Assembly (NCBI GenBank): GCA_037447655.1
Contig: JBBHKE010000467.1
Coordinates: forward strand, 1-64,000
Reading direction: 5' to 3'
Length of the DNA stretch: 64,000 nucleotides
DNA from: Zygnema cylindricum
Taxonomy: Eukaryota; Streptophyta; Zygnematophyceae; Zygnematales; Zygnemataceae
Position numbers and translations under genes: made by a program. Positions 32,819-55,943 of the stretch are shown here, piece by piece. Within the stretch, counting starts at the first letter, position 1. Each line of letters starts with the position of its first letter. The notes under the pieces are model-generated. The model was not told the DNA's origin. It made no database searches and was given only the letters and a program-made list of their open reading frames with translations.

Positions 32819-32823
32819 GGATA
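32819..32823. repeat. Target duplication GGATA, right
   Basis: It matches 18449-18453. Confidence 0.85.
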
Positions 32824-33216
32824 ATGCTCCTCCGTTTTTTTTTCAAACCTCTCCGAAGAATGCTCATCGGCGGTTGTTCCTTATTAGGGTCTCACATCAC
32901 CTCTTGATCAGAGACACGTTTTTCTTCTAGTGGGGGTGTCGGTTCTCGCTCTAGTTCTTCAGCACGTGAAAGCTCATGATCCTCTTCATCTTCGCGGTCA
33001 CCCTCTCGGAGTGGGTAATACTCCAGGTTTTGCAAAATTTTTTGATCCTTCCCCTCTAGTGCTTCCACCTATGTCTTCCTTGCTAACAGCCGCTTCTACC
33101 TCTTCCTCTTCATTCGTTACTGCTGTACTCCGTTGTGCCTCTACAATGGCCTTGGCTGCGGCCAAAAGCTTCTCCCGATAGGGTATATCTTCATTTGCCT
33201 TCCGCATTAGTCTCAA
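32824..33216 (-). pseudogene. Unrecognised broken ORF, upstream half
   Basis: Minus frames read RLMRKANEDIPYREKLLAAA, AIVEAQRSTAVTNEEEEVEA and, after a frameshift, EYYPLREGDREDEEDHELSR and REPTPPLEEKRVSDQEVM. An A9 run near 32840 shifts the frame into the half at 17861-18448 once the insertion is ignored. It is strongly acidic and Glu-rich. It lies just downstream of the gypsy chromodomain ORF on the same strand, so it could be an extra ORF of that element or a separate gene. Confidence 0.5.
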
Positions 33217-33349
33217 TCTTTTTGGTGGTGCAGAGGATGATGACGATATGGACGCTATTGTGGTTGAGAGTTCTAGTTAATTGATAAGTGCAGGTAGGTT
33301 GGTGGTATGAAGCAAGAGGTTCTAAAGCCTGTTGATACTAGGTTTGTCA
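33217..33349. other. Gap between gypsy pol and the broken ORF
   Basis: No domain. No copy of the gypsy LTR is seen here, so the 3' LTR of that element is missing or displaced. Confidence 0.4.
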
Positions 33350-34312
33350 CTAGGGTTGATAGCAACTTTGGTTGGAAGGGGTTGTAGGTCTCATCATCGA
33401 AACCTTCCTTGCGTTGCAGTGTACGAGGGTATCGCAACGTTTGAAACTTCGCCGATTGCGATACTGCGGCGATATCACGGGTTCGACATCGCCAACGTTG
33501 CGATTCACAATTTCGCCATTGCGATCCTCTGTCACCGCAGTCGCGATGTTGCGATTCTCTGACAACGTAGCTGCTATTCTGCGATCCCATGGCTGGGCAG
33601 CGATAGCTCTGCGTTCTTTCGTCATCACTGTTGCGTTCCGTTGCTCAGCCCCCAAGATGACTGCGACGGTTGCGACATTGCGATTGGATTTTCGTAGGCG
33701 TCCGTTGTGTCTAACGCTCCGGGTAGGCTGGGTGTCCAGACTCTCCTTGAATCGGCGCAGTAATTCCGCGACATAAAGATCTTTTTCATCGACCCAAGAA
33801 TCTTCTTCCGCATTGTAACCTTTCCACCGAATCAGGTACTCGGTAGTATGGGACAGCCCGCGTCGTAATTGGCGGGACTGCAGAATCGCTTCCACCTCAT
33901 ATTTATCCATGGGATTTTGAACCGGGGGAAGAGGTGTATGGCAAAGCCGATTCGGGAACATTAAATCAGGGTTGCGCAATGGCTTGAGGAGGGACACATG
34001 AAAGACATCGTGTGTTTTTGAGGCCGAAAGAATGTCAAGGTTGTAAGCAGCCTCGTTTACTTTGGGGAGCATAGTAAATGGCTGTGTAAATCTCTGTGCC
34101 AATTTCATAGAAAAGGCATGTGAGAGGGATAGGTTTGCCATATTCAGCCTAATGTTATCCCCAACACGAAAGTCAATGTGCTTTTGATGAGTGTCGGTTT
34201 GTGATTTTTGACGACTCTTCGCCTGTTGGAGGACTGCCGCCAAATTTCTCCAAATTGACACGCAACATTTCGGCAAAGTCCACTGCGACACGCGTGCTAC
34301 AGTCATTTCCAA
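33350..34312 (-). CDS. gypsy integrase C-terminus and chromodomain, with repeat-derived tail
   Basis: A 320-codon open frame. It contains the GPY/F-type region (FRVGDNIRLNMANLSLSHAF ... LPKVNEAAYNLDIL, KTHDVFHVSLLKPL), then a chromodomain (EYLIRWKGYNAEEDSWVDEK DLYVAELLRRF, residues about 160-195) that would bind modified histone tails and direct integration. About 100 residues follow, encoded by low-complexity DNA with repeated GCGAT/CGCAAC motifs (NRNVATVAV, ENRNIATAV, NRNVGDVE); this tail is probably not part of the ancestral protein. Confidence 0.85.
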   Translation of the reverse strand: MEMTVARVSQWTLPKCCVSIWRNLAAVLQQAKSRQKSQTDTHQKHIDFRVGDNIRLNMANLSLSHAFSMKLAQRFTQPFTMLPKVNEAAYNLDILSASKTHDVFHVSLLKPLRNPDLMFPNRLCHTPLPPVQNPMDKYEVEAILQSRQLRRGLSHTTEYLIRWKGYNAEEDSWVDEKDLYVAELLRRFKESLDTQPTRSVRHNGRLRKSNRNVATVAVILGAEQRNATVMTKERRAIAAQPWDRRIAATLSENRNIATAVTEDRNGEIVNRNVGDVEPVISPQYRNRRSFKRCDTLVHCNARKVSMMRPTTPSNQSCYQP

Positions 34313-35397
34313 TCAGATTTTGGGGAAGGGTTGACTGTCGTTCGATGACGGAGAACGGCGTTGCATTAGTGGAAGAATGGATTGCACTGTTGTATGCAAC
34401 TTCAATCGTCGTCAGTTGTTTTGCCATATCTGTATGGTGTACCAACACGTAAGCGCATAGGGCTTTCTCCAATGTCTGGTTCACTCTCTCTGTTTGTCCA
34501 TCCGTCTGAGGGTGATAAGCGGTGGACATAGCCAAATGTGTTCCGCAAATAGCAAACAGATTCCTCCTGAAGTGACTAACAAATTTTTGGTTGCGGTCAT
34601 TGACAATCTTCTTAGGATGTCCATAGTGGCAGAAGATCACACGGAAGAAGAGATCCGCGACATCTCGAGCAGTAGCCGTGGTTTTTGTGGGGAGGAAATG
34701 GGCGATCTTAGTAAGATAGTCGACGAGAACAAGAATGGAGTCATAGCCATCCGGCGTTAATGGTGGAGCGACGATAAAGTCCATCGAGATCGCTTCCCTA
34801 GGGGCGAATGGCGTTGGAAGGGGCTGCAAGAGTTTTTGACGACCAGGATCGGTTTTATTCCTTTTGCAAGAGTCACGCGTTTCGACATACTTCGCAATAT
34901 CTTTGTCATATTTGGCCAATAGTACGCTTCGGCAACTTGTGTAGTACGTTTGTCTCGCTTGAAGTGTCCGTTGAATGGATCGTCATGGCTTAAATGCAAG
35001 ATAGTATGCCGTAACTCTTGATTTGTTGGAATATACAATCGGGTTGTCTGACTCGTTTTGTATCGCCACATGCCGTTGGCAGTTTGAACCAATATTTTTC
35101 TTTTGACGAGTTCCGCGATTTTGTCGTCGCCTAAGTATACCGCGTTAATTTTGTCCAACCACTTTTCGTCCATTGCAGCGTACTCGTGACAGTGTTGATT
35201 TTTTGGTCGTTAAGTTTGTCAGCTGCGATAGTATCCGCTTCCAAAGTTTCGTCCTTGCGTTTCTCCAATAGCTGTGATATATCTGCCGCGGTCAGCGCAA
35301 CAACGCCTGGTCTTCTTGACAAAGCATGAGCAAGATTTATCTTACCTTGCTTGTATTCGATAGTTAACACCAGTCCGAAATTTTGTAGGAATGTCAT
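34173..35397 (-). pseudogene. gypsy integrase zinc-binding and core domains
   Basis: The HHCC region (RHTILHLSHDDPFNGHFKRD ... AEAYYWPNMTK) lies in 34757-35173. After a frameshift the core reads MDFIVAPP, HPKKIVNDRNQKF and HPQTDGQTERVNQTLEKAL, keeping Asp, Asp, Glu. 35131-35397 holds the RNase H end and linker (EYKQGKINLAHALSRRPG). Confidence 0.88.
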
Positions 35398-36751
35398 CCA
35401 CCTATCTTATTTCTTGGATAACTTCGGTTGTGTTTGCAAATACTGTAACGCATGGTGGTCCTTAATACAGTGATCCGCTTCCCTTGAACGTAACACTTCC
35501 AAACTTCCAACGCATTAGTGATGGCTATTGTTTCTTTCTCTCGAGTGGCCCAATTAAGTTTTGTCGCGTTGTAGGCCTCTTCCGAAATCCTGCATAAGAA
35601 TGGCTCCAATAGCCGTATCACTCGCGTTAGTGATTATTGTCCAAGGTAACTCTGGACTGGGAACCGCTAACACAAAGGCGCTAACCAACTGTTCCTTTAG
35701 CGTGTTAAAGGCTGCCTTCTGCACTGTCTCCCACTCATAAGGATCGTCATTTTTGAGCAAATTAGTGAGTGGTGCGGCAATTTTTGCAAATCCCTCCACG
35801 AACCGTCGATAATAAGAGCATAGCCCAAGGAAGCTCCTCAACTCCTTGATATTTTTTGGTTGAGGCCACTCCTTGATTGCCTTAGTTTTTTTGGGGTCCA
35901 CTGCGATTCCATCTTGACTGACCACGTGACCCGAAAACTCAATTTTGTCTTTTAAAAAGTCGCATTTGCTCATCTTCGCGTACAACTTGTTCTCCCTTAA
36001 AACCTGTAAGACAATCCTTGGGTGCTGGATATGGTCTTTTAACGTCTCACTATACACCAAAATGTCATCTAAAAAGATGATTATAAACGCGGCCAAATAT
36101 TGCCAGAAGATCGTGTTCATCAAATGCATAAACCTAGCCGGGGCATAGGTCAATCCAAACGGCATGACCAAAAATTGGAAATGACCGTACCGCGTTCAGA
36201 GTGGAATCTTTTCCACATCTTCCTCTGCAATTCTAATTTGATGATAGCCAGTTCGTAAGTCTATCTTAGAGAAATACTTGGCACCTCTAAGTCGGTCCAA
36301 GAACTCGTCTATACTGGGAAGGGGGTATGTGTCTTGACCGTTAACTTATTTAGAGCGCAGTTGTCCAGACATATACGTAGACCTTCATCTTTCTTGGTCA
36401 CGAAGAGGACAGGGGCTCCGTATGGCGACTTGCTCGGCTTAATCCCTCCAGCCTCTACTTACTCTGAAAGTTGTCTTTTGAGTTGGTCCAACTCGGTGTT
36501 ACCATTTTATACGACCTGTTGGGCGAGGGAACTGCTCCCGGAAAAATCTCGATCTTGTGGTCAACGTCACGTTTTGGAGGTAAACCTTTTGGGAGTTTTG
36601 GGGGAAAACCATCAGCATACTCTTCGATAAGCTTTGTCACGACTTCCGGGGCCTCAACGGAAGCCTTTCCTGCGGTGTTCCCTTCTATGGAGCCAAATTC
36701 GGGATCCTTTTTTTCCCACTTCTCCGGAATCCCGTCTTTGACTTTCTCCAC
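35394..36751 (-). pseudogene. gypsy reverse transcriptase and RNase H
   Basis: 36455-36751 carries the RT N-terminus (FPPKLPKGLPPKRDVDHKIE). 35554-36171 has [16 protein letters not shown], the catalytic FLDD ([12 protein letters not shown]), [20 protein letters not shown] and the start of RNase H ([15 protein letters not shown]). Stops and frameshifts around 36180-36480 and 35600 break the frame. Confidence 0.88.
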
Positions 36752-36754
36752 AAA

Positions 36755-37345
36755 TTATACAACCACGATTCTAATTGTTTCTCCTTTCTTGAGGGCCCTC
36801 TTAAGCTGTAAAACCGAAAGCAGGCGTCCCTCTTTTGGGTCTTTACCAGCCACTCCCACCTTTACCTCGAACTCTCTTTCACCTTTACCCATTTTCATGC
36901 TATTACTCCTCCAATCAATCTTCGGATTCCACTTTTGGAGCCATGGCTTCCCTAAGATTACCTCATAATCTTCGCGGGGTAAGACGTGAAGAGTGTCATA
37001 CCAATGAAAATTCCCCATACTAACTCGTAACCAAGGTGTGCGATGGGTAATCACAATCGAACTACCATCGGCTAATTAAACTGATTGATGGTTTGGAACA
37101 ATGATAAGAGGGAGTTTCAACTTCTTCACCGTCTTCTCGTTGATAAAGTTCCCGACGCGCCCGAATCCACTATGAAACTGGTTGCGCTGCCCCCCGATTT
37201 TACCCGAAAAAACCAAGGGATCTCCACCTTCTCCAGCGAGTCTCATGGCATTAAGCTTGCCCCTCCTAAGGCTTTTCTTTTTGGGACATTCTCTAGCCAT
37301 ATGGTCTGGGGAACGGCACTAGAAGCATAGTCCATTGAACCTCCT
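36755..37345 (-). pseudogene. gypsy protease and zinc knuckle
   Basis: The knuckle ends in DHMARECPKKK near 37295. The protease site VDSGASGNFIN is present near 37165, but a one-base shift splits it between frames. The C-terminal part reads YEVILGKPWLQKWNPKIDW (36755-37054), typical of gypsy proteases. Confidence 0.8.
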
Positions 37346-38198
37346 GCGTTGGAGCTCCACGGGGAAGTGATCGTCGGTTTTGTTTTTGGCGGTACTCTTC
37401 TTCTTCTTGAGTGCGTTAACCGCGTCTGCCTCCTCCTTGATGGCTCATAACTCCATAGGGGTTGGTCCGTCGTCCCTTGGACCTCCTCCGTTGCTACTTG
37501 ATCCAAAGTGATAGGATCTACGGAGAGTGAAGTCTACGGATTCGGTACGTTCTGCGAACTGAACAATTGCCGAGAGACTAGCAGTTGTTGTTTTTTGTGT
37601 GAGCCACTGTTCCACATCCCTCCGAATAGACGCCTTGAGTCCCTTAACATATCGATGAACCGCTTCATCCTCCGTCATCGTTGGGATTTGAACCTTGCAT
37701 TCCAAGAATCGTTGCGTGTATTCCAAAACAGAAGTGCTTTGTTTCAACACCGAAATCCTATCCTAACCGAAATTCATGTCTTAACTATGTTCACATGTTG
37801 CCAGGAGGCACAAAAAGAATTGACGAACATGGTCCAAACAGTGGGTACCTTGTCGCTTTCCACCATTGCTCTCCACCATGTCCTTGCGGCTCCTTTAAAT
37901 AGCCCTCCCGCGTAATAAACCTTTTCACGCTCAGACAGGCCGAGGAAGTTCTCCAGATAATTTGCTACTGAAGACAACCACCCGTCAAGATTCTTATGCT
38001 TGGCAGGGTCAAATTATCGTGAAGTCTTAACTTAGGCCTCCGCAAATCTCTCTCGGCGCCTCCATGTGTCCGATCACAAAGACGAGATTCTAAAGTTGCG
38101 ACGGTGTCGCTCAGGTGAGCGTTTTGCAATCTGACATTCTCCAATTCTCGAAGTACTCGCTGTAACATATCAGCTGTGAAAACGGCATGACCTTCCAT
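37346..38198 (-). pseudogene. gypsy Gag
   Basis: The start at 38198 gives a coiled-coil-like N-terminus (MLQRVLRELENVRLQNAHLS, DTVATLESRL). After frameshifts: FLGLSEREKVYYAGGLFKGA ARTWWRAM (37774-37977) and SVLEYTQRFLECKVQIPTM, RYVKGLKASIRRDVEQWL (37445-37750), the Retrotrans_gag core. Confidence 0.85.
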
Positions 38199-38218
38199 GC
38201 TGCCGAGTCACGAGGATC

Positions 38219-38230
38219 GCTCCGATACCA
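38219..38230 (-). promoter_or_regulatory. gypsy primer-binding site, tRNA-Met 3' end
   Basis: The minus strand reads TGGTATCGGAGC, one base off the complement of the initiator tRNA-Met 3' end (TGGTATCAGAGC), one base after the LTR end. It contrasts with the internal site used by the copia family here. Confidence 0.8.
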
Positions 38231-38231
38231 A

Positions 38232-38960
38232 TGTAAAAGGGGTGGGACTAGTCCACACACATCGGTAGTGCACAGCAGAAAATAACCAGGAGTTCACTCG
38301 TAGCAACATCAACAGCCAACAGCGTACACAACATACACAATGAAGGGCTTAAGAGTTTATATTTCTCCGAGAAACGGATTACAAAATTGGAGTTCACTCG
38401 TAGCAACATCAACAGCCAACAGCGTACACAACATACACAATGAAGGGCTTGAGAGTTTTTATTTCTCTGAGAAACGGATTACAAAATTGATTGCTTGTTG
38501 GAAGATGTCTACTCGCAAAAGAGTGTCTCTTCACTATGTCTACCCACTATTTAAACTAGTTATTTGCTAGTCAATCCGGTTCTACAGCTGGCTAACTATG
38601 TACACGTGGACATTCTTCACTAACTACACCCTATCCACACTAAGTTCTATAACTATACAGTTCAATCTACATTTTGCTATGTTGCTATGCTGTTAAGTTG
38701 CATTGTTTTGCTGCTCTACTACATTGCTATGCTGCGCTAGTCTGACATCGCAGCTACAACTGCTTCTCAACTTGTTGAAATTAGTAGTTTTATTTGTTGG
38801 ATTTTGGAAACCTTAAGTCCTCTCTATATCACATTACTATGCTGCCATGCTGCGCTGGTCACACCGTAGTCATAGCAGCGTGTGTGATAAAGATATTGCG
38901 CTGCCATGCTGCGCTGGTCACATCGCAGTCATAGCAGCTTGCGTACTTGGTACTAAGTTT
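38232..38960 (-). repeat. gypsy 5' LTR (outer boundary uncertain)
   Basis: The inner end is TTTTACA on the minus strand. It holds a 100-bp tandem duplication (38289-38488) and, further out, degenerate GCTATGCTGC repeats. AATAAA on the minus strand near 38460 could be the poly(A) signal. Confidence 0.55.
38289..38488. repeat. 100-bp tandem duplication in the gypsy LTR
   Basis: Two copies start GGAGTTCACTCGTAGCAACA at 38289 and 38389. They differ at about three positions. Confidence 0.9.
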
Positions 38961-39831: not shown

Positions 39832-40579
39832 CATGGCTGAAAAGGGCTATGAACAACAGGTTTTGGGCCCACGCCCATGGCTACCCATTTTGGATCAATC
39901 AACCCTGCCCATATTTGATGGTTCTAAATATTAGTATTGGAGGAGTATGATGGAGAGCTACTTCAAGTCGAGGAAGCTAATGGATGTGGTGGACGGGACA
40001 TGTGTTGAATCATCGGTTGGATGGGAGGAGAAGAACGATGAGTGTATGCTGATTATCAAGCTATCTTTTAATGAGGAATTTGTATTGACTTACCTTGGTC
40101 TGGAAAGTGCAGCTGAGTTATGGAAGTGCTTAGAATGTGGATATCAAAAGACTTCCGTGTATCACTGGATGAGTAGTGTCACAAAAATAGTTGAGTATAA
40201 GTATGATGGAGGTAGTATGATGAATTACTGTATTCGGTTACAAATATTGTTTGTAGAAAATGAGAGTGCAGGTGGAAACTTTACAAATGCTCAAAAGGCT
40301 TTTCTGTTAATGAAAGGATTACCTAAGGAATATAGGTGTGCTTTAGATAGATTAAAACAGGTTGATAAAAATGATTGGAACTTACAATTAGCAATCAGGT
40401 GTGTTTTAGAAGAAGAGGCCAATAATGGGGCTCTAAAGATTAGGGGGATTTTTCAAGGTGTCAGATCACAATTTCAAAGAAATAAGAAAAGTTGTAAGGT
40501 AGAAAACTGTTTTTATTGTAATGATGTAGGACATACTTTCAGGGTATGTCCTCTATATAAAAGTGCATGTCTCACATGA
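39832..40579 (+). pseudogene. copia family B gag
   Basis: The frame starts MAEKGYEQQVLGPRPWLPIL inside the LTR end and runs through the primer-binding-like site, as in family A. TAG interrupts FDGSKY-stop-YW at 39932. From 39947 it is open for 210 codons: MMESYFKSRKLMDVVDGTCV, capsid (LESAAELWKCLECGYQKTSV ... AFLLMKGLPKEYRCALDRLK) and a classical knuckle CFYCNDVGHTFRVC. It ends shortly after the knuckle. Confidence 0.8.
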
Positions 40580-40708
40580 AATTTCAGAGAAGGGTGGGAC
40601 AACAACCGAGTTCAGCCCCCTATACAAAGGCAACAGAATGCATTTACTAATCCGAGGAAATATTGTGAAGATAAAAGGGTTACACCTTCTTTCGAGAAAT
40701 TTGTTTAT

Positions 40709-41158
40709 TTGCCGACCGTCAATTTTGGAAATATGGAGAACGAGGACAGAGGGGGAAAAATAATTGTCACCGAAGATGGTGTGGAGGAAAAGAAGACAGA
40801 AAAGGACGCGGTTTTTGAAACTTTTTCTGGTGACAGATTGGTGAGTGATGAAAATGTGCAAGAGGAAGAGGTTGTTGAAGTAAGAATACTAGGAGGAAGT
40901 GAAAGGGATTTGGAAATTGAAACTGAAAATAATTTGCAGGAGGAGATTAATTCATCTAAAGAAGGAGAGAGGAAAAGTGTTCAGAAAACTGGAGTACGTG
41001 AAGAAGTTCATAATACGGAAGAAGAAAATAAAATTGTGAAAATGGGAAAAACATCAAAATTCGGTAAGAAAATGAGGAAAGGAAGTAGAATTCAAAGGAT
41101 GAATCGTAGAAGAAAACGTAGTCCTAAAGTGGTCAAAAAAAGACGGCGTGAAAAATAA
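40709..41158 (+). CDS. Charged ORF downstream of gag, acidic then basic
   Basis: 149 codons, first Glu/Asp-rich (EDGVEEKKTEKDAVFETF, EEEVVEVRILGGSERDLEIE), ending in a strongly basic tail (RIQRMNRRRKRSPKVVKKRR) that looks like a nuclear or nucleolar localisation or nucleic-acid-binding signal. No known domain. It is in the position of pol. Confidence 0.5.
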   Translation: MPTVNFGNMENEDRGGKIIVTEDGVEEKKTEKDAVFETFSGDRLVSDENVQEEEVVEVRILGGSERDLEIETENNLQEEINSSKEGERKSVQKTGVREEVHNTEEENKIVKMGKTSKFGKKMRKGSRIQRMNRRRKRSPKVVKKRRREK

Positions 41159-41361: not shown

Positions 41362-41430
41362 TGCTGCTATGCTGCTGTGCAGCTATGCTGCTATGCTGTT
41401 ATGCTGCTATGTTGCTATGTCGAGCCCATG
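41362..41430. repeat. Degenerate GCTATGCTGCTATGC repeat
   Basis: Short tandem units of CTGCTATG. Similar units occur at 38690-38940, at the outer part of the gypsy LTR. Confidence 0.7.
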
Positions 41431-41628
41431 GCTGTGATGCTTCATGCAAGAAGAATAATATATAAATTTGGCGACAAATAACACTCCATGTGTAGAATTC
41501 CTTACGTCGGAATACAATGATCATCCTGACAACATTAGTGTGGACATATAAATGATAAAAACAATGACAAGACATAAAAGTTACCCACCCCGTCCCAATG
41601 TTGGGACCGTCGGGTTCACTCCTGAATC

Positions 41629-41645
41629 ATTCCCCCCCCTTCTTA
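41629..41645 (-). promoter_or_regulatory. Polypurine tract and probable 3' LTR start
   Basis: The minus strand reads AAGGGGGGGGA then ATGATTCAGG. A G-rich run just before TG is the normal junction of internal region and 3' LTR in retroelements. No second LTR copy was found to confirm it. Confidence 0.5.
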
Positions 41646-41679
41646 GGTCCTTGTCCTAAGAAGCCATTAAGACCGAAGC

Positions 41680-43189
41680 TCAAACCCCCATTTCACACTC
41701 CCCACAAAACCAAGGTCGGCCAAGTTGGTCCCGACCTGCCCAATCTGTAGGCAAGCAAGAAGAATGCCAAGCTCGATTGCATGCCTCACATAATAAAATG
41801 TCTGTAGTTTCGTAACCAGGGGCACAAAAGGGAGAATTAGAACAAATGGGAGGAGAGGGGAAATAAGTGAAATGTAATGTTGGCTCGTCCTCGAGCCCTC
41901 GAAGGTGGCAAGGAGCCACATTAATTTGATTATCTTTAACTCTCTTGCCGTCAGCCCCTTCCAAAGTTAGCACTCCTTTAGGGGAAACCTTAACCACCTT
42001 CAAAATAATCCGGCCTGCAGAAATATCCAAAATATCATTTTTCTGTCGCATCTGATAAACAAAATCTCCGGGCTGAAAACGTCGTTGTCGAGGAACATAA
42101 GAGCCACTCCTACGGTGGGAATACCAAAGCTGATCTCTGTGTTGGGCCGCTTGCAAATTGCCCATGGCTCGTTCTCGTTCATTGATGTTAGGCACATCCC
42201 ATTTCTGTGTATTCGTGTCAAAAATCATGCCAGGGGAACCTAAGCGGTATGCATGGCTCCGGGGAAAAGAAACAAGAGTGGGGAGTGCGCCTCTCGGCTG
42301 ACTCGATTTGTTGCAGTCATAAAATGGTTGTCGAGGTGTAGACGTGACAGGAGTAGCTGTACGGCCTTTGTCCAAAATCTGATCGACGGTGAGGTTTGGA
42401 GGACGCTTTTGTAATCCCACGGCTGCCTTCAACAGTGAAAGAGGAGCAAGATTGGTCCAATACGAGCGAAGACGATAAGCACGAGACCCCATCTGAGCTG
42501 CATCAAACACCAAAGGCTCCCCTAAATAGTGAATTGTCTCTTGCCAAGCAGTAACTACCTTACTAGGTTGATCTGCACCAGGAAAGACATTCTCCAACAA
42601 ATATCCCAACGATTTGTGCTGATGTAGTTGCAAAATATTGAGAATAAAAACCATTTGATAGAATAAATGACTCCGACTGTCACAATTTCCCCTTCCCTTC
42701 CCTGCCTGAGAATACCCCTGACAAGGCCAGGCGGCTATCACTAAATCTACCCACCCCAAATCTCGGATGTGTTGCGAGGTAATCAAGTCAACATTTTGTG
42801 GGAGTCGATGATGAGATTGTGAAATAGCAGAAACAGGTAATTGGAGAGGGTACAATCGGTGAAGCTCTAATAGTCGAAATTCGCTTGCTGCCCGAGCTGA
42901 ACATGAAATTTCCACGGCCCAATAACTTCTAATCTGGTGGCCGTTCATCAATAAAGCTTCTAAATCCGTACTGATGCCAGAAAAATAAGGAGACCATTGT
43001 TAACCCTGGCGGCTCCGGTGTCAAATCAACCACTTTCCGAGGAAGTGGCTTCAAAATTTGGCCCTGAATAAAATGTTGAAATTCGGTCCCTCTTTTACAT
43101 TCTTTTTTCGTAGAAGGCAATGTCTTCTCATCTATCAAAACCTTGAACACTTTTTCGTGACTTCGTCTCAAAGAAGCCGCTACCTCCAA
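41680..43189 (-). pseudogene. Cytosine-5 DNA methyltransferase with C-terminal PHD finger (one frameshift)
   Basis: Two minus frames: 43189-42929 and 42951-41680. C5-methyltransferase motifs in order: motif I (VSLF/SGIST, split by one extra T near 42993), motif IV with the catalytic Cys (IAAWPCQGYSQAGKGR), motif VI (YLLENVFPG), motif VIII (MGSRAYRLRSYWTNL), and a C-terminal block (NINERERAMG). The order and spacing resemble the DNMT3/DRM side of the family. Next comes RRFQPGDFVYQMRQKNDIL ... GVLTLEGADGKRVK, similar to the integrase C-terminal region of gypsy elements, and last a PHD-like finger (CSNSPFC, CEAC, WHSSC, CGEC). Apart from the one-base shift the reading is clean, so it may be recently active or mis-sequenced. 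Confidence 0.8.
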
Positions 43190-43300
43190 TCTCCGTTTGT
43201 GGGATTCCTCCCACTCAGCGGAGATCGGGAATTGCTATACAAGCGGTGCAATGTCGGTGGATTCATCCTCCGATTAAACGGAAAATTTAGAAGAATGAAT

Positions 43301-44155
43301 TTAGGACACATTGCTAGTGTAAACGGGGTAGCAGCCTGCTGCTGCCTCTTGGGAATGGTGACGTCCCCACAAGGTGAGAGGGACAAAAACTCGGCGAGCC
43401 GGTGAAGTTGGCAAATCCCGAATGCAGATTTGCTCGCTCCAAAAATCTACCATGGCTCCCAATCGGGTCCAAGTGTGTGTTCCCAATAAAATTTCAAACT
43501 GGTTGCCCTCGACCACGAGGAAAGGAAGGCGAATAGAAATCTTCTGACCTGCATCATCCCCAAATTCGATGTCCATGCCCTTCACCATACCAAAAAATGG
43601 TTGATTACCACTACTAACTGTACTTAGGCACACCTTGCTTGGGAATACTTTCGGCCTGCAATTGGGTGGTAACTTCTCCAAAGCACTAGTATATATAAGG
43701 TTAGGAAGGGCACTAGTATCAACCACTGTCTGGAGAAAACCACCAAAAATATTGATCTTAAAGTGTCCAGTAGAATTTCCAATATATGCAACGGCTAAAG
43801 AGGAGTAATCCCTATCGGCGATTGGCACCTTTGCCGAGCTACCGAAACTGGAATCGGAAGATGAAATGGGTGCTCCAAAGGCATCTGTGGATGTCACCCT
43901 GCCGGTGATCTTAGATCCTAATGCCGAAATGAGTTCCTCATCCGAAATTTGGTGGGAGTTAGCCAAAGTGCGAACTAACTCTATAGAGTGAGATGAGAAG
44001 ATCCACCAACATGGCGGAGGGCCGAGAAGGTGGGACAGAAGGATTCGATACCGAAGTAGGATGAGATTCCACCTTAATGGTGAGAGGAGAAGTAGAGGAT
44101 TTGTCCGATTTGACTTTTGTTGTGTCTGGTGGGACTGGATCAGAGGTTGGATCAA
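43301..44155 (-). CDS. Retroviral-type aspartic protease
   Basis: The open minus frame has a pepsin-like retroviral protease: GHFKINIFGGFLQTVVDTSA (active Asp in VDTSA), a flap region, and FLVVEGNQFEILLGTHTWTR LGAMVDFWSEQICI, which matches the ILLG-W block of gypsy proteases. The VDTSA motif replaces the usual DTGA or DSGA, a conservative change. It overlaps the end of gag in another frame (43959-44155), so expression would need a frameshift or a mutation has intervened. It ends at a stop 110 bases before the methyltransferase region. Confidence 0.75.
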   Translation of the reverse strand: MIQPLIQSHQTQQKSNRTNPLLLLSPLRWNLILLRYRILLSHLLGPPPCWWIFSSHSIELVRTLANSHQISDEELISALGSKITGRVTSTDAFGAPISSSDSSFGSSAKVPIADRDYSSLAVAYIGNSTGHFKINIFGGFLQTVVDTSALPNLIYTSALEKLPPNCRPKVFPSKVCLSTVSSGNQPFFGMVKGMDIEFGDDAGQKISIRLPFLVVEGNQFEILLGTHTWTRLGAMVDFWSEQICIRDLPTSPARRVFVPLTLWGRHHSQEAAAGCYPVYTSNVS

Positions 44156-45180
44156 CAGAATTGGTCATCTTTTGTGGAGGTGGCGGGGGAGAATCGGCCT
44201 TAACCCCCAAACCGACTTTCGTCTTCAAAAAGACTTGCCGAGGGGTAAAAGAAAGAATGTCAGATTGCCCCTTCCTCTCATGATCAATGGGTTTCGCTGG
44301 TAACTTGTCTTTCCTTTGATCCTCAGTGGTTTTTCTTAATTGTCTCTTACTCTCTCCAATGCCAACATTAAACAAAATCGGATCACCTGCAAACAATCCA
44401 CTCATCCGAGAGTGGTCTGAACTCTCCCATCCTTCCGGATCCTCCTCTAAATCTGAATCTTCTGTCTGTAAAGCTGCCATTTGCTGAGTTAGGTAAGCCA
44501 ACCGTGCCTCTTTCTCTAATTTCTTGGTCGACTTTGAAGAAGAAGCACCTTTGCTTGCGTTCTCTCTCATCAATAAATCAAGTTTGAGTTTAACTTCCGA
44601 CAACTCTTTCTGTAATTTTGTTTCAAAAGCTGTTGGTTTTCCGAATTGTGCCCCCCAAACCGGATCGGGTTCATTCCTCTCCCCCTCGGGTTGAAATGTC
44701 CCACGAGGAAGATAAATTTGACAAAATGTCGGAATACTCATAAATGCCTTCCCGGTAGCAGGATTAGTTTTCACATATTTAAGCAATTCTTTCGGAATCC
44801 CGTGTTTCTGAAAACATTGAGCCGCCGTATGGCTCTGATATCCACACGCCTCGCATGTCGTGTTGGGAGTAGAGAACTTTGCCCGCAAATCATCAGGAAT
44901 GTTCCGATGGTCCAACTGAGGAAGCTTAATTCGACGAATTCTCTGAAATTCCACTTGCTGTGCATCTGATGTGTCACCTCCTTTCTCGTGATCTCGACCT
45001 CCACCATCCTTTCCGTTTTTCTGATCACCAATTCCACGTGCCACATTCTGAGCATCTCGTTCGTCGTCAATCTTTGCCCTCTTTGCTGCTAACTCAACTG
45101 ATAAAGGTCTCGGACATTTTTGCCACCCATATCCAACTTGTCCACAATTGTTGCATGAGAATAAGATTTGTCAATCCGCT
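43959..45180 (-). CDS. Gag C-terminal part with two zinc knuckles
   Basis: 361 codons are open from 45044, and the same frame can be followed to about 45180. The first knuckle reads CNNCGQVGYGWQKC, with Tyr in place of His. The second, CEACGYQSHTAAQC, is complete. A proline-, lysine- and acid-rich spacer follows, with a helical stretch (LQKELSEVKLKLDLLMREN) that may form a coiled coil. Such double knuckles bind the RNA genome. Confidence 0.75.
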
Positions 45181-45313
45181 CCGTGAGCTTGCGGATTCGG
45201 TTCAGCCACTCCTTTCCCCTTTATTGCTCGAGATACGGCGGCATTTAATTCAGCAATGGTGACAAAAGGAGTGTTGGATCCAGCAAATGCTTCCTCTTTT
45301 CGAACTTTTCTTG

Positions 45314-46825
45314 TCATGGTCCTCTCTTGAGCTTCTCGATCTGCAAAATGATCATGGTATTTTTGAGCAACGGTGTAGCCAGATCAAAAGCAGTGATAGA
45401 CTGACCATCAAGAACTTTTTGAGCGTTCCAATTCTCTAAATTTTGGGTCGTTTTCGGGTCAAGGGATTTTGACAACGTGTGTTCAAACTTAGCAATTATC
45501 AACGAATTCTTAATATCTTGCTGAGTTCGTACACAAAGATTGGCAAGACGGTTGTACATGGTGAGAGTAGTTTCATCAGGCTTCAATTTAAATTCATGGA
45601 ACTCTTGCATAAAAGCCTCATTTCGCTCTATATATTGAGTCTCCCATATGCCCGGTAATGTGGTAAAAGGTTAGGAATTTGCCTCCATCCTCGTAGCAGA
45701 ACGAGCGACATACTCTGATCTATTCATCTTAGAGTAAGCTAATGTCTCATCACGTAACTTGTCTCAAACGTGTACATGGCTGAGATTGGGTGACGGATGG
45801 TTGCTTCTAAATCAGCCCCGCAGTAACATGGGTCTGGTTTAAGGTCGGATCTGAAATTTTGATGGTTGGAGAAGTTAAACTAATCTTCCTCTCCATGTAA
45901 TTTGACAAAGCCTCTCTTGCCAATCGATCAACCATCATGAGAAATAACATCTGCTCTAAGTCTATCAGAATATCACCACCTCGATATTTGTTGACTTTCG
46001 CCACATAAAAAATTCTTCCACTGGAGTTTAAAAGGGGAAAAAAAATGCACGATGCATCCCTTGTAAATAACCTCGAGTTATCCCTCATTCAAAAACCGTC
46101 CTCAAACGGCAATCAAAACCCCTTGGCTTCACTGGTATTAATATCAATGATAGGGGAAAGAGGGTTTCCTAAAGACGACACACTCCCCCTTGGTGAAAGA
46201 GGATCGGGTGGCCTTGAAAGGCTACAAAAATCAAAAACAATTGACGAGGATTTTGAAGAGGAAAGGGAAAAATGGGTGGATAGTGAAGGAAGAGTGGAAT
46301 GAGATGAAATTGATTTATCTATGATTTTATCTCCATCACCCCGCGGCTGCACATGGCCCTCTTCATGAATAGGTGGAGGATGGGAATGAGCTGACCTAAA
46401 GGTGGGATTGGGGTCTAAGTTTCCAGTAGAAGGAATAGGGGAAATGGGTGAAGACGGTATAGAAAACGAGGCGGAGGAGCTAGAGGGAGAAGGAGGAGAA
46501 TGAGAAGGGTTTTTCTTGTATGAGGAATGATAAAGGGTATAGCTAAAGGTGTGGGTGAGATTTGTCGCAACCTAATTTCCAAATTTTCTTGTAATTTTTG
46601 GAAAATCTCTTTGAAAATCACCTTTCGATCCACTCGAAGTCTAACTCTCCAATTGTCTGTTCCATTTGGTGATGAAATATGTGTTGTTTCCGTCCCCTTC
46701 CTTTCTTGTACCAATGCATTAGATCTCAAGAGAGTATCATCAATCCCTCGAACCTCTTGTGGTCTTTTCCTAGAAAATCGCCCAACCCCCAATGGTTTAG
46801 TTGTTGCCTTGGACGATTCCCCCAC
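45314..46825 (-). pseudogene. Gag N-terminal and capsid parts (interrupted)
   Basis: The minus frames 46415-46825 (RKVIFKEIFQKLQENLEIRL), 45807-46088 (DILIDLEQMLFLMMVDRLAR EALSNYMERKI) and 45314-45610 (MQEFHEFKLKPDETTLTMYN RLANLCV, then IIAKFEHTLSKSLDPKTTQN) line up as one Gag. The last is the Retrotrans_gag capsid signature. Stops and frameshifts separate them. Confidence 0.7.
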
Positions 46826-46950
46826 TTGCCTTGTAATTTTGTGACCCCTCGAATCCCAATATGTCTCTTTCCACTCTTCCCTAACCCCTTGGAAACATCA
46901 CTCTCTCTACCCCAACGTTTAATTCTGCTTGAATGGTTGACATCAACCTA

Positions 46951-47053
46951 GTTAGGTCAAATCGTTGGTGTCCAATCGAATGCATAATGGGAGGAAAAAT
47001 AAGTTATGTCAAATTGTTGGTGTCCAATAGAACGCATAATGGGAGGAAAAATA
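46951..47053. repeat. Tandem repeat of about 55 bp
   Basis: TTGGTGTCCAATCGAATGCA at 46963 recurs as TTGGTGTCCAATAGAACGCA at 47018, each followed by TAATGGGAGGAAAAATA. Confidence 0.75.
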
Positions 47054-47216
47054 GGATCGAATTTCGACATTTCATTCAAGGCCAGATTTTGACGCCACTT
47101 CTTCGGGAGGTGGTTGATTTGACACTGGAGTCGGCATGGTTAACTGTGGTCTCATTTTCTTCTTGCGTCATTGGGGATTGGCGTCATTGGGGATTTGTGC
47201 AGGCACTGATGTAGTT
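47054..47216 (+). pseudogene. Fragment of a second methyltransferase, opposite strand
   Basis: The plus frame reads FRHFIQGQILTPLLREVVDL TLESAWLTVVSF, clearly homologous to FQHFIQGQILKPLPRKVVDL TPEPPGLTMVSLF at 43090-42990. It breaks in motif I, where GCGTCATTGGGGATT is duplicated. The rest of the enzyme is missing. Confidence 0.7.
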
Positions 47217-51790: not shown

Positions 51791-51854
51791 GTGTTTTTTT
51801 TAATGGCTACGATGACGTGTGCGTCTACCTCCATCACGGGAGCTTCTCAGTGGA

Positions 51855-53590
51855 GGTGAGGGGGGGGGGGGGGGGGGAGGGAAGGGGTGAGGGTGAGGAG
51901 AGGGGGGAGGGATGAGGGGAGGGGTGGAGGCAAAGGGGTGAGGGGGAGGGGGGGAGGGAAGGGGTGAGGGGGGGGAGGGAAGGGGTGAGGGGGGGAGGAA
52001 AGGGGTCAGGGGGGGAGGAAAGGGGTCAGGGGGGGAGGGAAGGGGTGAGGGGGGGGAGGGAAGGGGTGAGGGGGGGGGGAGTGAAGGGAGGGGCGAGGGA
52101 AGGGGGAAGGGGAGGGGGGGAGGGGAGGGGGGGGGAGGGGAGGGGTGGAGAGAAGGGGTGACGGGAAGGGGAGAGGGAAGGGGTGAGGGGAGGGGGGAGG
52201 GGAGGGGTGAGGGGAGGGGGGGAGGGGAGGGGTGAGGGGAAGGGGAGAGGGAAGGGGTGAGGGGAGGGGAGGGGGGAGGGGGGAGGGGAGGGGTGAGGGG
52301 AGGGGGGAGGGGAGGGGTGAGGGGGGGGGAGGGGCAGGGGGAGGGCAGGGGGAGGGGGTGTGAGGGGATATGGGGTAAGAGGAGGGGTAAGGGGAACAGG
52401 GAAAGGGGTAAGGGGACTTGGGAGCTTCTCAATGGAGGGAGAGGGAGGGGAGAGGTGAAGGGAGGGGAAGGGAAGGGCAGCAGCGAGGGGAGAGGGGAAG
52501 TGGGGTGGGGAGACGGGAGAGGGAGGGGGGAGCAGAGGGAGGGAGAGTTGAGGGGAAGAGGGGACTAGGGAGGGATACGGGGAGTGGGGAGAGATGAGGA
52601 GAGTGGGGAAGGGTGAGAGGATAAGAGAATCGTCTGTATCTCTAGTTTGTTTGATCCCCTTTTCTTTTTTTTTTTTTTTTTTTTTGAGTTCAGCTGCCGG
52701 CCGTCAAGTTTTAGCCGGCCGTCAGATTCCGGCCGGCGGCAGATTCTGGTGGCGCAGATGGCGGCAGAGAAGAGCAGCTCTGCAGGTGGGGAGGAGGGAG
52801 AGGTGGGGAGGAGGGAGAGGAGGGGAGGAGGGAGAGGTGGGGAGGAGGGAGAGGTGGGGAGGAGGGAGAGGAGGGGAGGAGGGAGAGGTGGGGAGGAGGG
52901 AGAGGTGGGGAGGAGGGAGAGGTGGGGAGGAGGGAGAGGAGGGGAGGAGGGAGAGGTGGGGAGGAGGGAGAGGTGGGGAGGAGGGAGAGGTGGGGAGGAG
53001 GGAGAGGGAGAGGGGGAGGGAGGGAGAGGGAGGGAGAGGGAGGGAGGGGAGGGAGGGGAGGGAGGGAGAGGGAGGGAGAGGGAGGGAGAGGGAGGGAGAG
53101 GGAGGGAGAGGGAGGGAGAGGGAGGGAGAGGGAGGGAGAGGTGGGGAGAGGGGGAGGGAGAGGGAGGGAGGGGAGGGAGGGAGGGGGAGGAGAGGGGAGG
53201 GGGAGGGAGGGGGAGGGGGAGGGGGAGGGGGAGGGAGGGGGAGGGGGAGGGGGAGGGAGGGGGAGGGAGGGGAAGGGGGAGGGGGAGGGAGGGCGAGGGG
53301 GAGGGGGAGGGAGGGCGAGGGGGAGAAAGAGGGAGGGAGAGGGGGAGAAAGAGGGAGGGAGAGGGGGAGAAAGAGGGAGGGAGAGGGGGAGAAAGAGGGA
53401 GGGAGAGGGGGTGAAAGAGGGAGGGAGAGGGGGTGAAAGAGAGGGAGAGGGGGAGATAGAGGGAGGGAGAGGGGGACAAAGAGGGAGGGAGAGGGGGAGA
53501 GAGGGAGGGGGATAGAGATGGAGAGAGAGAGGGGGGAGGGGGGAAAGAGGGTGATGGAGGAGGATGGGGGGAGAGAGGGGAAGGGAGATG
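51855..53590 (+). repeat. Long purine tract, G/A on the plus strand
   Basis: About 1.7 kb in which the plus strand is almost only G and A, broken by a mixed segment at 52640-52790. Sub-units include GGGGAGGGGTGA, GGAGAGGTGGGGAGGAG and GGGAGGGAGA. It starts with a run of about 19 G. Open frames on both strands are repeat products (Gly/Arg/Glu-rich or Pro/Ser/Leu-rich) and are not called as genes. Confidence 0.95.
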
Positions 53591-53759: not shown

Positions 53760-55339
53760 TGGAAGGTGAAGAGGGCGACGCTTTTGAAAAATGGGGTATG
53801 TAAAAATAAAATAAATAAAAATGTTTTTATGTTACCATTAAAAAGAAATGTTAGTATTTTTAATTTGTTGATTTTTTCATTTTTGAAACTGGAGAAAAAA
53901 ATAAAAAACACAAAACTTAGTAATTGTTAGTGGTTATTTTTTTTAATTTCATGGAAATGGGACAGCAGTAGTTTCTTGTATCGCGGAGGTTTTTCCTATA
54001 ATCGATATCTATTTTTTCGGGTCGATACTCGATATATTGTATCTTCGATAATCGCGATATGGTATATATTGTATCTCCTCTATCGTGAATATTTCATCCC
54101 CGATAATCGAGATATATCGTATCTCCGATAATCGCAATCTATCGATATTGATACCGATGTATCGATACCGATATCACGATGTCGTCGATAACCGTACAAT
54201 AATTATATTCTTACTTTTGGAACGTCTTTTCGAGACTACCGTAGAGGTGAAAAATGTTTCTCGAAGAGTTACGCTACATTTCCTATCGTTATTGACGTTA
54301 AGGATTAATAAGTGTTAGTTCAAACCTAGAATATATATAAGGCCAATTTAGTGCAAGGACTCTTGGCAGCTTGCAGTTTAAATAGTGTTGTTAACATTAT
54401 TGTATGATTTTCGGCCAAAAAAACGCATGATAAATTGGTGTTATGAACTTTAATAACAATGGAGCGTAGTACTAGATGTCTAACTTTTGGGTGACGCTGA
54501 TTTATAAGATCCAGTTTCCTGAAATTTGTTGCAAAAATGCAACTCCATAGGTGTCATTAAAAGGAAGAGACGTGTTCCAATGAGATAATGAAAATCTAAT
54601 TGAACCTTTGCGTTTCTGTAAGTGCTCAGATTTCTGTACATTTTTTTTTTGAGGGAAGTATCTAGAAAGGGATTGGTCATGACAAAAGTGAGAGGACGTA
54701 CAAATTCCGTACTTTAAATATCTGGAGAAACTGACAAAAAAAGCAAATGAATATTTTTTCCTTGTTCCAGGCAGTGGGAGGTAACTTGTCTTTTGTCATT
54801 CGTAGGAACCCTGCCGTAGATTTTGTCGAGACATTGGACTTCAAGAAAGTATCTGACTCTTGTCAAAAGAATTTTAGTGAATTTAAAATTATGGGCAATC
54901 AACTGTTCGGTGAAGGTTTGGCGAGATATGTTTTCTGTCTCGTAAAGGTTTACTTAAGGATTATGCACTATGGTCGATTCTTGGAAGTTATCGAATTAAC
55001 AACATTTATCAGCAAACTCGATAAATATTGGATTTTTAAAGTCGCGGTACTGGTAAATACTCATATCGCGATATATCGTCCCTGAATTTGTTCGACAAAC
55101 AACACTAGACAGCAGTATATTTTCAGAAACCCTAATATTTGCACTTTTTTGGAACGATGTTTTCAATAAAGTTTGGTTCATTCTTATTTAATCATCATTG
55201 GTTTATGGTCCCGTTTTGAGTGGGGGCCAAGATACTGATTTTTTGTATTATATTTTTTTTACTAGGTTTTTTAGGGGAGGAGAGAGCGAGAGAGACATTC
55301 AATTTTTTGTGTACTCTGATGCTTTTTAAACTCTGACAG
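53760..55339. other. No clear gene; CGATA-rich palindromic repeats; possible upstream part of the STR14-like gene
   Basis: At 53998-54195 the motifs CGATAATCG, ATATCG and TATCGATA recur, and ATCGCGATATATCG is found again at 55066. The frame at 54747-55085 has an acceptor-like CTTGTTCCAG at 54761-54770 and a donor-like GTAAAG near 54942, but its translation does not resemble the N-terminus of the rhodanese family. The true 5' exons of the next gene are not identified. Confidence 0.4.
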
Positions 55340-55432
55340 GTAAAGTCATTTACCGCCAAAGAGGCTCTCTCTCTCTCTCAAGAGAAGGGCTTTACTCTCG
55401 TCGACGTCCGGCCCCAGTATGAGTTTGAGGAG
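55340..55432 (+). CDS. STR14-like: STR14-like plastid rhodanese protein, exon a
   Basis: 31 codons between CTGACAG and GTAGGA: VKSFTAKEALSLSQEKGF and TLVDVRPQYEFEE. The DVRP motif opens the rhodanese fold. It aligns without gaps with plant STR14-type proteins and joins in phase 0 to the exon at 60687, giving continuous family sequence across the splice. The transit peptide and first residues must lie upstream; I could not place them. Related plant proteins are chloroplast-located; the exact reaction of this subgroup is not settled. Confidence 0.85.
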
Positions 55433-55440
55433 GTAGGAGG

Positions 55441-55600
55441 CCTATTCATTTTTCTCTCTCTCCCCCTCTCCCTCTTGCTCTACCTCTCTCTCTCTCTTCC
55501 CCTCCTCCCTCTCTCTCTTCCTCTCCTCCCTCTCCCCCTCTCCCCCACTTCCCCCTCTCCCTATCCTCTCCCTCTCCCTCTCCCTCTCCCACTCCTTCCT
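55441..55600. repeat. CT-rich microsatellite in intron 1
   Basis: Runs of CTCTCT and CCCTCTCC on the plus strand directly after the exon donor. Similar pyrimidine-rich stretches occur at 57345-57412, and a purine-rich (GAGAGG)n at 60408-60446. Confidence 0.9.
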
Positions 55601-55897: not shown

Positions 55898-55943
55898 CCA
55901 GTGTGAAGAAACTCTCCTCGCGAGGAGAGTTGCTTCACACTGG
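55898..55943. repeat. Near-perfect 46-bp palindrome without a loop
   Basis: 23-base arms meet at CTCCTCG|CGAGGAG, with one mismatch near the middle of each arm (AAACT/AGTTG). It lies in intron 1 of the STR14-like gene. Confidence 0.9.

What the first reader, a model, noticed from the sequence alone, without database searches (positions are those of the whole stretch)
41430..46930. Retroelement carrying a DNA methyltransferase-PHD gene with no reverse transcriptase
Gag with knuckles, a retroviral protease, then a cytosine-5 methyltransferase (PCQ, ENV and R-x-R motifs) ending in a PHD finger are collinear on one strand and followed by a polypurine-tract-like run. Established: cytosine methyltransferases captured by LTR retrotransposons were reported by de Mendoza and colleagues (Nature Communications 2018) in a charophyte and in dinoflagellates. 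What stands out here is that protease and methyltransferase are only about 110 bases apart, so RT and integrase core are absent. It may be a trans-mobilised parasite that brings its own methylation writer plus a histone reader, a combination like the ADD-methyltransferase pairing of DNMT3. Function (self-methylation to calm host damage, or marking of insertion sites) is inference.
Basis: partly seen in the sequence, partly recalled or inferred. Interest (0 to 1): 0.92.

Follow-up and report, generated by a model that had tools for sequence, protein, structure and literature searches.

The report
Deleted methyltransferase-carrying algal jumping gene
This is a broken copy of a copy-and-paste mobile element whose fuller relatives in the same genome encode a DNA-methyltransferase-like enzyme and a predicted chromatin-reading finger in one polyprotein; this copy lost its copying genes by deletion, and two sister sites that share another such deletion were likely spread by helper copies.

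Summary
In detail: on the minus strand, 41.4-47.0 kb, lie gag with knuckles, a protease, a Dnmt3-like methyltransferase (MTase) and a PHD finger, without RT or integrase core. The reading changes. In 8 of 11 other copies mapped, the order is gag-PR-MTase-RT-RNaseH-integrase-PHD: MTase beside PR is normal, the PHD is the integrase tail, and the MTase-PHD "gene" is made by a 3.0-kb deletion at a 9-base shared word. But RT-less copies recur: 4 of 15 subfamily-I places, and one deletion (C398, C1326) sits at two different sites, one with a 4-bp target-site duplication, which suggests mobilisation in trans. The family is KnitGypsy-Dnmt3-like (de Mendoza 2018): same domain order, DIRS-like repeats. 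Added here: a PHD integrase tail, a conserved UAG between PR and MTase, integrase-type ends, and an integrase tree placing chlorophyte and streptophyte relatives in one clade in which the MTase changed place within pol. Host probably Zygnema cf. cylindricum (unverified).

The parts
41419..47001 (-). Remnant of a Gypsy-type, MTase-carrying retrotransposon (5' part and RT-RNaseH-integrase core missing)
   Evidence: Collinear with C895 47596-52437 (93.8%, 4848 bp) and 55437-56188 (97.9%, 752 bp)
45314..45670 (-). Gag fragment (open frame of 118 aa; capsid-like by position only)
   Evidence: inside the stretch collinear with C895; no Pfam gag match
43992..45227 (-). Gag C-terminal part with knuckles (C895 gag-PR residues 1-412)
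   Evidence: tblastn 94.9% identity; knuckle motifs translation
43238..43990 (-). Gag tail and aspartic protease (C895 gag-PR residues 414-664); frame change at its upstream edge and an in-frame stop near 43300
   Evidence: tblastn 95.6%; open frame 43301-44164
43235..43237 (-). TAG stop codon between PR and MTase in context TAG-CAA-TTC-CC, conserved in relatives
   Evidence: TAG in 14 of the 15 copies where the site was found, this one included (1 TAA; site not found in 4 of 19 looked at)
42983..43234 (-). MTase N-terminal segment up to motif I (own frame)
   Evidence: tblastn residues 1-84, 95.2%
42160..42984 (-). MTase catalytic segment (PCQ, ENV, RxR, ERERAMG); motif X deleted
   Evidence: tblastn residues 84-358, 96.7%; Pfam PF00145; motifs
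42161..42169 (-). Deletion junction at a 9-base shared word AGCCATGGG; 3.0 kb (RT-RNaseH-integrase core) missing
   Evidence: one place in the assembly
41836..42105 (-). Integrase C-terminal domain
   Evidence: tblastn 95.6% to C895 integrase tail
41686..41850 (-). PHD finger (tail of integrase in fuller copies)
   Evidence: Pfam PF00628 1.5e-5; tblastn 98.2%; profile against PDB PHDs 8.3e-20
41632..41645 (-). Polypurine-tract-like run directly before repeat A
   Evidence: sequence; same position in C895, C1100, C1374
41419..41632 (-). Terminal repeat A (214 bp) ending GCTCGACA; repeat B not found in the window
   Evidence: 96.7% to C895 repeat A; end
46950..47053 (.). 52-bp tandem duplication at the truncated 5' end
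   Evidence: D3, 92%
47054..47179 (+). Inverted fragment of the PR/MTase boundary region (C895 51510-51635)
   Evidence: 83.3% over 126 bp

Best explanation
This stretch is a decayed, internally deleted copy of a Gypsy-type retrotransposon whose fuller relatives in the same genome are ordered gag, protease, TAG stop, Dnmt3-like methyltransferase, reverse transcriptase, RNase H, integrase and a PHD finger, and it likely lost RT-to-integrase by a template switch at a 9-base shared word. How the parent family likely works: gag-PR is made first; occasional read-through of the conserved UAG (predicted) gives a Pol chain that begins with the MTase and ends with the PHD-tailed integrase. RT copies the RNA. 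The MTase is predicted to methylate the new copy or its surroundings, and the PHD to hold the integrase on histone H3 tails. The integrase inserts a DNA with ends TGTC...GACA and a 4-bp target-site duplication (seen exactly in 2 of 6 copies). The window copy itself is inactive by its sequence: no RT, no integrase core, no MTase motif X, broken frames, no 5' end. Some sister copies without RT-IN were probably supplied with these enzymes in trans.
For: Collinearity with C895 except for one 3.0-kb gap at a shared word AGCCATGGG. Domain maps of 11 other copies: 8 hold every domain, C398 lacks RT-IN, C412 and C182 are incomplete in the DNA held. Pfam on open frames: C1374 and C895 give MTase, RVT_1, RNase H, H2C2, rve and PHD in that order, C1920 likewise over two frames, C1100 as far as RNase H; in C1374 one open frame of 1520 codons spans MTase to PHD. 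Junction found once. MTase is Dnmt3-class: profile best against DNMT3A 1.6e-17; HaeIII 2.5e-9; a chain named only 'DNA methyltransferase' (4onj) 1e-6; DRM2 1.4e-5. dN/dS on MTase among copies without stops: median 0.14 (10 pairs, subfamily I) and 0.24 (9 pairs, II). UAG conserved; C895 and C398 have no Met between it and motif I. Exact 4-bp duplications AAGT (C895) and CACC (C398); C1100 3 of 4 bases. Shared deletion C398/C1326 at sites with different surroundings.
Against: 4 of 6 copies with both ends read show no exact target-site duplication. With copies bearing stops included, dN/dS in subfamily I rises to a median of 0.37 (44 pairs, 0.08-1.32); in II it stays 0.23 (14 pairs). The C1374 MTase frame has a Met between the UAG and motif I, so read-through is not the only way to start there. 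The microhomology fits repair of a genomic break as well as an RT template switch. No expression, methylation or histone-binding data. The 11 copies mapped were picked from the best matches, not at random. The assembly seems to hold uncollapsed haplotype pairs (equal scores; L016 and L017 identical), so copy counts are inflated.
Confidence: 0.9

Rival explanations
1. A trans-mobilised non-autonomous lineage: RT-less derivatives that keep MTase and PHD sequence spread using enzymes of complete copies, and the window copy is a decayed member or a parallel case.
For: Of 15 subfamily-I MTase places, four lack RT-IN: window, C398, C1326 and C1598. C398 and C1326 share one junction to the base; the genome search finds it at 3 places on 2 contigs. 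C398 has canonical ends with TSD CACC and lies in another repeat whose 39 other scored copies include none on C1326 and none above 89% identity, so the two are unlikely to be alleles.
Against: The window's own junction is found once, so it is no member of that lineage. C1326's MTase frame is broken and C398's has changes at conserved positions, so what spread need not be a working enzyme. Of the other 11 subfamily-I places 5 hold RT-IN, 2 hold at least part of RT, 4 are undetermined.
Confidence: 0.5
2. A genuine MTase-PHD gene (writer plus histone reader) that works as one protein, as in DNMT3 with its ADD domain.
For: In this copy both are in one open frame of 439 codons.
Against: The frame starts at motif I, motif X is missing, the part between is integrase C-terminal domain, the junction is found once, and in fuller copies about 1000 residues with RT-IN lie between.
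Confidence: 0.03
3. Host Dnmt3 gene into which retroelement pieces have inserted.
For: Dnmt3-class sequence.
Against: Tens of copies at fixed spacing inside elements: 28 of 75 MTase places have the element's terminal joint within 12 kb downstream on the same strand, 20 of them at 4.40-4.65 kb.
Confidence: 0.01

Closest known systems
KnitGypsy-Dnmt3 of Klebsormidium nitens (de Mendoza et al. 2018, PMC5890265)
   Same: Gypsy-type Pol with an intronless Dnmt3-class MTase; order PR-MTase-RT-RNaseH-IN in the K. nitens protein KFL_009030040 (P0003); repeats arranged as in DIRS (legend of Fig. 4c), as in C895 and C1100; low Ka/Ks; integrases in one clade.
   Different: Different host. Here a UAG separates PR and MTase, while P0003 as annotated reads through. 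The window copy lacks RT-IN. The paper's main text has no occurrence of PHD (figures not seen), although K. nitens integrase proteins KFL_015960010 and KFL_005000010 carry one. P0003 is partial and shows none.
Metagenomic elements with MTase between RNase H and integrase, or directly before integrase (P0004, P0009, P0011, P0012, P0118, P0130, P0132)
   Same: Same MTase family, same integrase clade, PHD at the integrase end.
   Different: MTase sits before the integrase; P0004, P0009 and P0011 have ECQ instead of PCQ. Hosts unnamed.
Ginger1-9_HM (PMC2836005)
   Same: Gypsy-integrase-like enzyme with a PHD near its C-terminus.
   Different: A DNA transposon, with Ulp1 protease, no RT, no MTase.
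SymbioDIRS-Dnmt3 / SymbioLINE-Dnmt (PMC5890265)
   Same: Retrotransposon-borne cytosine MTase.
   Different: DIRS with tyrosine recombinase, or LINE; dinoflagellate.
DNMT3A/B
   Same: Closest solved MTase relatives.
   Different: PCN rather than PCQ (alignment); ADD beside the MTase (recalled), no Pol.

Membership tests
KnitGypsy-Dnmt3-like Gypsy elements | Gypsy-order Pol (RT-RH-IN) with rve integrase | tested here: met
   Met by the family; not met by the window copy, which lost these by deletion
KnitGypsy-Dnmt3-like Gypsy elements | Dnmt3-class MTase inside Pol with conserved catalytic residues | tested here: met
   for copies such as C895, C1920, C1374; the window copy lacks motif X and has a frame change at motif I
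KnitGypsy-Dnmt3-like Gypsy elements | Repeat arrangement as in DIRS (split direct repeats) | tested here: met
   C895 and C1100: B-coding-A-B-A; A|B joint 442 places at <=1 mismatch, reversed-pattern control 0. C398, C1920, C544 are B-coding-A. Window: one A left
KnitGypsy-Dnmt3-like Gypsy elements | Purifying selection on MTase | tested here: met
   medians 0.14 and 0.24 among stop-free copies; 0.37 and 0.23 with all copies taken
KnitGypsy-Dnmt3-like Gypsy elements | De novo methylation activity | not testable with these tools
   needs expression and bisulfite data
DIRS/PAT order | Tyrosine recombinase instead of DDE integrase; no target-site duplication (second point recalled) | tested here: not met
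   rve integrase with D, D, E present; 4-bp duplications at C895 and C398
DNMT3 with ADD | Histone reader directly beside MTase in one enzyme | tested here: not met
   RT-RH-IN lies between them in 8 of 11 other copies mapped
Non-autonomous, trans-mobilised derivative | Same deletion at several sites with own target-site duplications | tested here: inconclusive
   Window junction: 1 place. C398/C1326 junction: 3 places on 2 contigs; duplication read at C398 only

The most novel reading that the evidence does not exclude
One old clade of green-lineage Gypsy elements (chlorophyte and streptophyte) carries a DNA-methylation writer and a histone reader in a single Pol chain from one capture; the MTase first sat before the integrase and was later moved behind the protease, where a UAG read-through controls its dose. 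RT-less derivatives that keep MTase and PHD are spread by complete copies, so a parasite of the parasite disseminates an epigenetic enzyme.
Probability: 0.35. Interest if true: 0.82.

Novelty: new variant of a known kind. Interest (0 to 1): 0.55.

Why it matters
The window copy alone is an ordinary deletion remnant. Its family matters in four ways. (1) It questions whether the Dnmt3 capture was confined to the K. nitens lineage: the integrase clade holds K. nitens, liverwort, Closterium and Haematococcus rows and this genome; among named records the MTase itself was seen in K. nitens P0003 and Haematococcus P0021 only. (2) A conserved UAG before the MTase makes a dosage mechanism for an element-borne epigenetic enzyme directly testable. 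(3) It shows DIRS-like repeats together with DDE-integrase ends and target-site duplications, a replication mode that I cannot explain from the papers seen. (4) If the host is Zygnema cf. cylindricum SAG 698-1a, the at least 9-fold larger PHD family reported for that strain (PMC9915684) may be largely integrase tails.

Tried and rejected
Rejected: RT and IN between PR and MTase (not seen in the copies mapped). Rejected: MTase-PHD as a family trait. Rejected: window copy as one of a set with the same junction. Thought unlikely: C398 and C1326 as two alleles of one site (with the limits stated).

Led nowhere: Rfam on the window (0 matches at gathering score); rbcL in the assembly (none), so the host could not be named; a protein search with a subfamily-II MTase frame gave 5 hits, one already known. 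Literature: eight searches listed no paper whose title or shown abstract start reports an MTase-bearing Gypsy with a PHD integrase; this is an open-access library, and few of the listed papers were opened. Genome-wide counts of the UAG site and of PHD, and an Hsp70 search, were asked for and never answered. A second integrase-tail/A unit in C1374 and C1233, and a doubled junction in C1326, remain unexplained.

Weak points: target-site duplications were read by eye from 6 copies, and the 4-bp register was settled after seeing C895 and C398. Hand counts: stop-free rows (38 of 96); PF00628 (77 of the 120 listed of 284); the 15 subfamily-I places. In one search, 129 integrase stretches were thinned to 112 rows at 88% identity, 30 rows carry no layout label, P0062 and P0064 sit in the 'wrong' part, the layout label needs 4 changes, and most rows labelled RNaseH-IN start at RT, so whether an MTase lies upstream is unknown. 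One search's dN/dS used unoriented loci and was discarded. In one search six integrase-half rows were dropped (90 of 96 used) and only the 100 listed joints of 442 were used. One search read three proteins (P0001, P0006, P0007) with alignment gaps in them; positions there are alignment columns.
Full report
WHAT IS THERE. The window is G000:C359:1-64000 of a 352.8-Mb eukaryotic assembly in 2689 contigs. On the minus strand, 47001 down to 41419, lie a gag fragment, gag with two knuckles, an aspartic protease, an MTase, an integrase C-terminal domain and a PHD finger, then a purine run and a 214-bp repeat, A. The MTase and PHD calls pass Pfam's cut-offs (36.3 against 22 bits; 25.3 against 24). 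Protease is the weakest call (sub-threshold in the relative C895).

THE FAMILY. The MTase query gives 96 scored places from 3073 first-look candidates: a close group, subfamily I (about 75-97% identity), and a larger one, subfamily II (52-59%). By hand count 38 of the 96 rows have no stop in the matched part. Pairs with equal scores (C895/C1515, C1100/C2362, C1920/C1974) and an identical pair L016/L017 suggest uncollapsed haplotypes, so counts are inflated. I fetched 20 kb around ten well-matching copies and 17 kb around an eleventh. Domain mapping: C895, C1100, C1735, C2462, C1233, C1374, C1920 and C544 hold gag and/or PR, MTase, RT, RNase H, integrase core, integrase C-terminal domain and PHD in this order, some of them interrupted; C398 lacks RT-RNaseH-integrase core; C412 and C182 are incomplete in the DNA held. 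Pfam on open frames agrees. RT has YIDD; the integrase has its D, D, E (SLDLLGP, VLTD, QADGLAER in C895, C1920, C544).

THE DELETION. C895 47596-52437 matches window 47001-42161 and 55437-56188 matches 42169-41418. The two ends overlap by nine bases, AGCCATGGG, present on both sides in C895. The junction 26-mer with up to three mismatches occurs at one place in the assembly, the window. The copy also has frame changes in gag-PR and at MTase motif I, a stop in PR, and a truncated 5' end with a 52-bp duplication and an inverted 126-bp fragment of its own PR/MTase region. By its sequence it is dead.

OTHER RT-LESS COPIES. C398 loses C895 53027-55518. Distances from MTase to the terminal A|B joint flagged two more: of 75 MTase places on contigs C1-C2051, 28 have an exact listed joint within 12 kb downstream on the same strand; 20 lie at 4.40-4.65 kb, 6 at 8.6-11.2 kb, and C1598 and C1326 at 1.09 and 1.85 kb. 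Their DNA shows that C1326 has the same breakpoints as C398 and that C1598 has others (C895 52265/55750). The C398/C1326 junction is identical letter for letter; the genome holds it at three places, C398 once and C1326 twice, 1.44 kb apart. C398 and C1326 are 96.7% alike over 1.9 kb. C398 lies in another repeat; that flank has 39 other scored relatives (40 of 538 candidates scored, itself included), none on C1326, the best at 89%, whereas an allele should match far better. C398 is bounded by canonical ends and CACC on both sides. So one RT-less derivative has probably been inserted at two sites; without RT and integrase core of its own that needs helpers. Duplication of genomic DNA is the remaining alternative. 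Against a strong reading: C398's MTase frame is open but altered at conserved positions (R to H and W to S around motif VIII, AMD for AMG), and C1326's is broken. Of the 15 subfamily-I places, 4 lack RT-IN, 5 hold it, 2 hold at least part of RT and 4 are undetermined.

ENDS. C895 reads B(1.25 kb)-coding-A(0.21 kb)-B-A, and so does C1100; C398, C1920 and C544 read B-coding-A. B starts TGTC, A ends GACA, the inner joint is GACA-GC-TGTC. Allowing one mismatch this joint (17 bases) is found 442 times, its reversed control never. Target-site duplications: AAGT/AAGT at C895, CACC/CACC at C398, TCTT/TCTC at C1100, none at C1920, C544 and C1374. The purine tract stands directly before the first A. De Mendoza et al. 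report DIRS-like repeats for KnitGypsy-Dnmt3. Here the ends look integrase-made. My inference: a circular cDNA is opened at one A|B joint; untested.

STOP CODON. Between PR and MTase stands TAG-CAA-TTC-CC in 14 of the 15 copies where the site was found (window included; one TAA; 4 of 19 copies not found by the pattern), in both subfamilies. In C895 the PR and MTase frames are in phase across it. C895 and C398 have no methionine between it and motif I; C1374 has one. The context resembles the tobamovirus read-through signal UAG-CAA-UUA (recalled, no call). I infer programmed read-through, so that MTase would be the first domain of each Pol chain. K. nitens P0003 and metagenomic P0002 as annotated lack this stop.

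MTASE AND PHD. Motifs I, IV (PCQ), VI (ENV), VIII, IX and X are present in C895, C1920 and C1374. The profile's best solved relatives are DNMT3A/B (1.6e-17), then HaeIII, HhaI, 4onj and DRM2 (2.5e-9 to 1.4e-5). dN/dS among stop-free copies is 0.08-0.61 (median 0.14, 10 pairs) and 0.11-0.30 (median 0.24, 9 pairs); with copies bearing stops the medians are 0.37 (44 pairs) and 0.23 (14 pairs). The PHD profile matches KMT2D, CHD4, KDM5A/B, PHF21A, UHRF1 and others (best 8.3e-20); several of these bind unmodified H3 tails (recalled), hence a prediction, not a result.

WIDER CLADE. Protein searches gave 26, 5 and 284 hits (of the last, 120 were listed and held). An MTase profile finds the domain in 25 of the 150 proteins held. 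Two layouts exist: MTase before RT or right after PR (P0001-P0003, P0006, P0007, this genome) and MTase before integrase (P0004, P0009, P0011, P0012, P0118 and others). In an 18-row integrase tree the MTase carriers form one clade, 100/99; in the 17-row MTase tree one branch, 99/97, parts this genome and the first layout from the second layout plus P0017 and P0021. In a 112-row integrase tree the clade (105 rows) has 100/97; rows with MTase before integrase lie at its base, and most rows with RNase H joined to integrase, this genome and K. nitens among them, fall in a derived group of 76 rows, 98/93; P0062 and P0064 are exceptions and 30 rows are unlabelled. For most rows of the derived group the record starts at RT, so an MTase upstream can be neither shown nor excluded. 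Named rows: K. nitens, Calypogeia fissa, Riccia sorocarpa, Closterium, Haematococcus lacustris. Of 120 listed, 77 carry PF00628 (hand count); the Closterium rows and the one Riccia row do not. The simplest reading is one capture, then one move of the MTase; horizontal transfer and parallel capture of close MTases are not excluded. This would widen the de Mendoza conclusion of an acquisition in the K. nitens lineage.

HOST. No plastid rbcL to name it. Size, Copia-rich context and the reported PHD excess fit Zygnema cf. cylindricum SAG 698-1a (359.8 Mb, 3587 scaffolds, 29.8% Copia, PHD at least 9-fold larger; PMC9915684, passages only). Unverified.

PAPERS. PMC5890265: abstract, opening part, section 9 and passages, figures not seen. 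PMC9915684, PMC2836005, PMC2774666, PMC12477816, PMC6338049: passages. All others: listings only.

VERDICT. The finding as titled is a deletion artefact of a known kind of element; the family behind it is a richer variant of that kind, and RT-less derivatives recur often enough to deserve the flank test above.

Noticed in passing
window 6177-33000: Nest of related Ty1/Copia-like repeats in both orientations (naming from frames, no Pfam run); parts recur near several MTase elements (C895, C1100, C1233, C2462, C412, C544).
   Followed up: partly
window 32818-38240: Another Gypsy-type element (RT/RNase H similarity 31-35%); the C398 MTase element lies in a relative of it, its two flanks matching window 32818-35174 and 35375-38240.
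   Followed up: partly
window 39935-41158: Copia-type gag (Retrotran_gag_2, 2.9e-12) on the plus strand followed by a second open frame, next to the 3' end of the MTase element.
   Followed up: no
window 51800-53500: G-rich low-complexity block (GC 0.62, GC skew 0.85 at 52-54 kb) inside a 40% GC window.
   Followed up: no
window 55337-60896: Exons that look like a plastid rhodanese-like protein (recalled similarity, no family search run), suggesting a photosynthetic host gene.
   Followed up: no
C1374 31305-35679, C1233 19166-25117, C1326 258047-259514: Second copies of the integrase-tail/A region downstream of the first (C1374, C1233) and a doubled deletion junction (C1326); in C1233 a Copia-like piece lies between. 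Unexplained.
   Followed up: partly
P0004, P0009, P0011, P0021, P0028, P0143: Retroelement MTases with ECQ in place of PCQ at the catalytic motif, P0021 being annotated in Haematococcus lacustris.
   Followed up: partly
G000 contig pairs C895/C1515, C1100/C2362, C1920/C1974, C2179/C2675, C839/C2519: Equal or near-equal match scores suggest uncollapsed haplotypes in the assembly.
   Followed up: no
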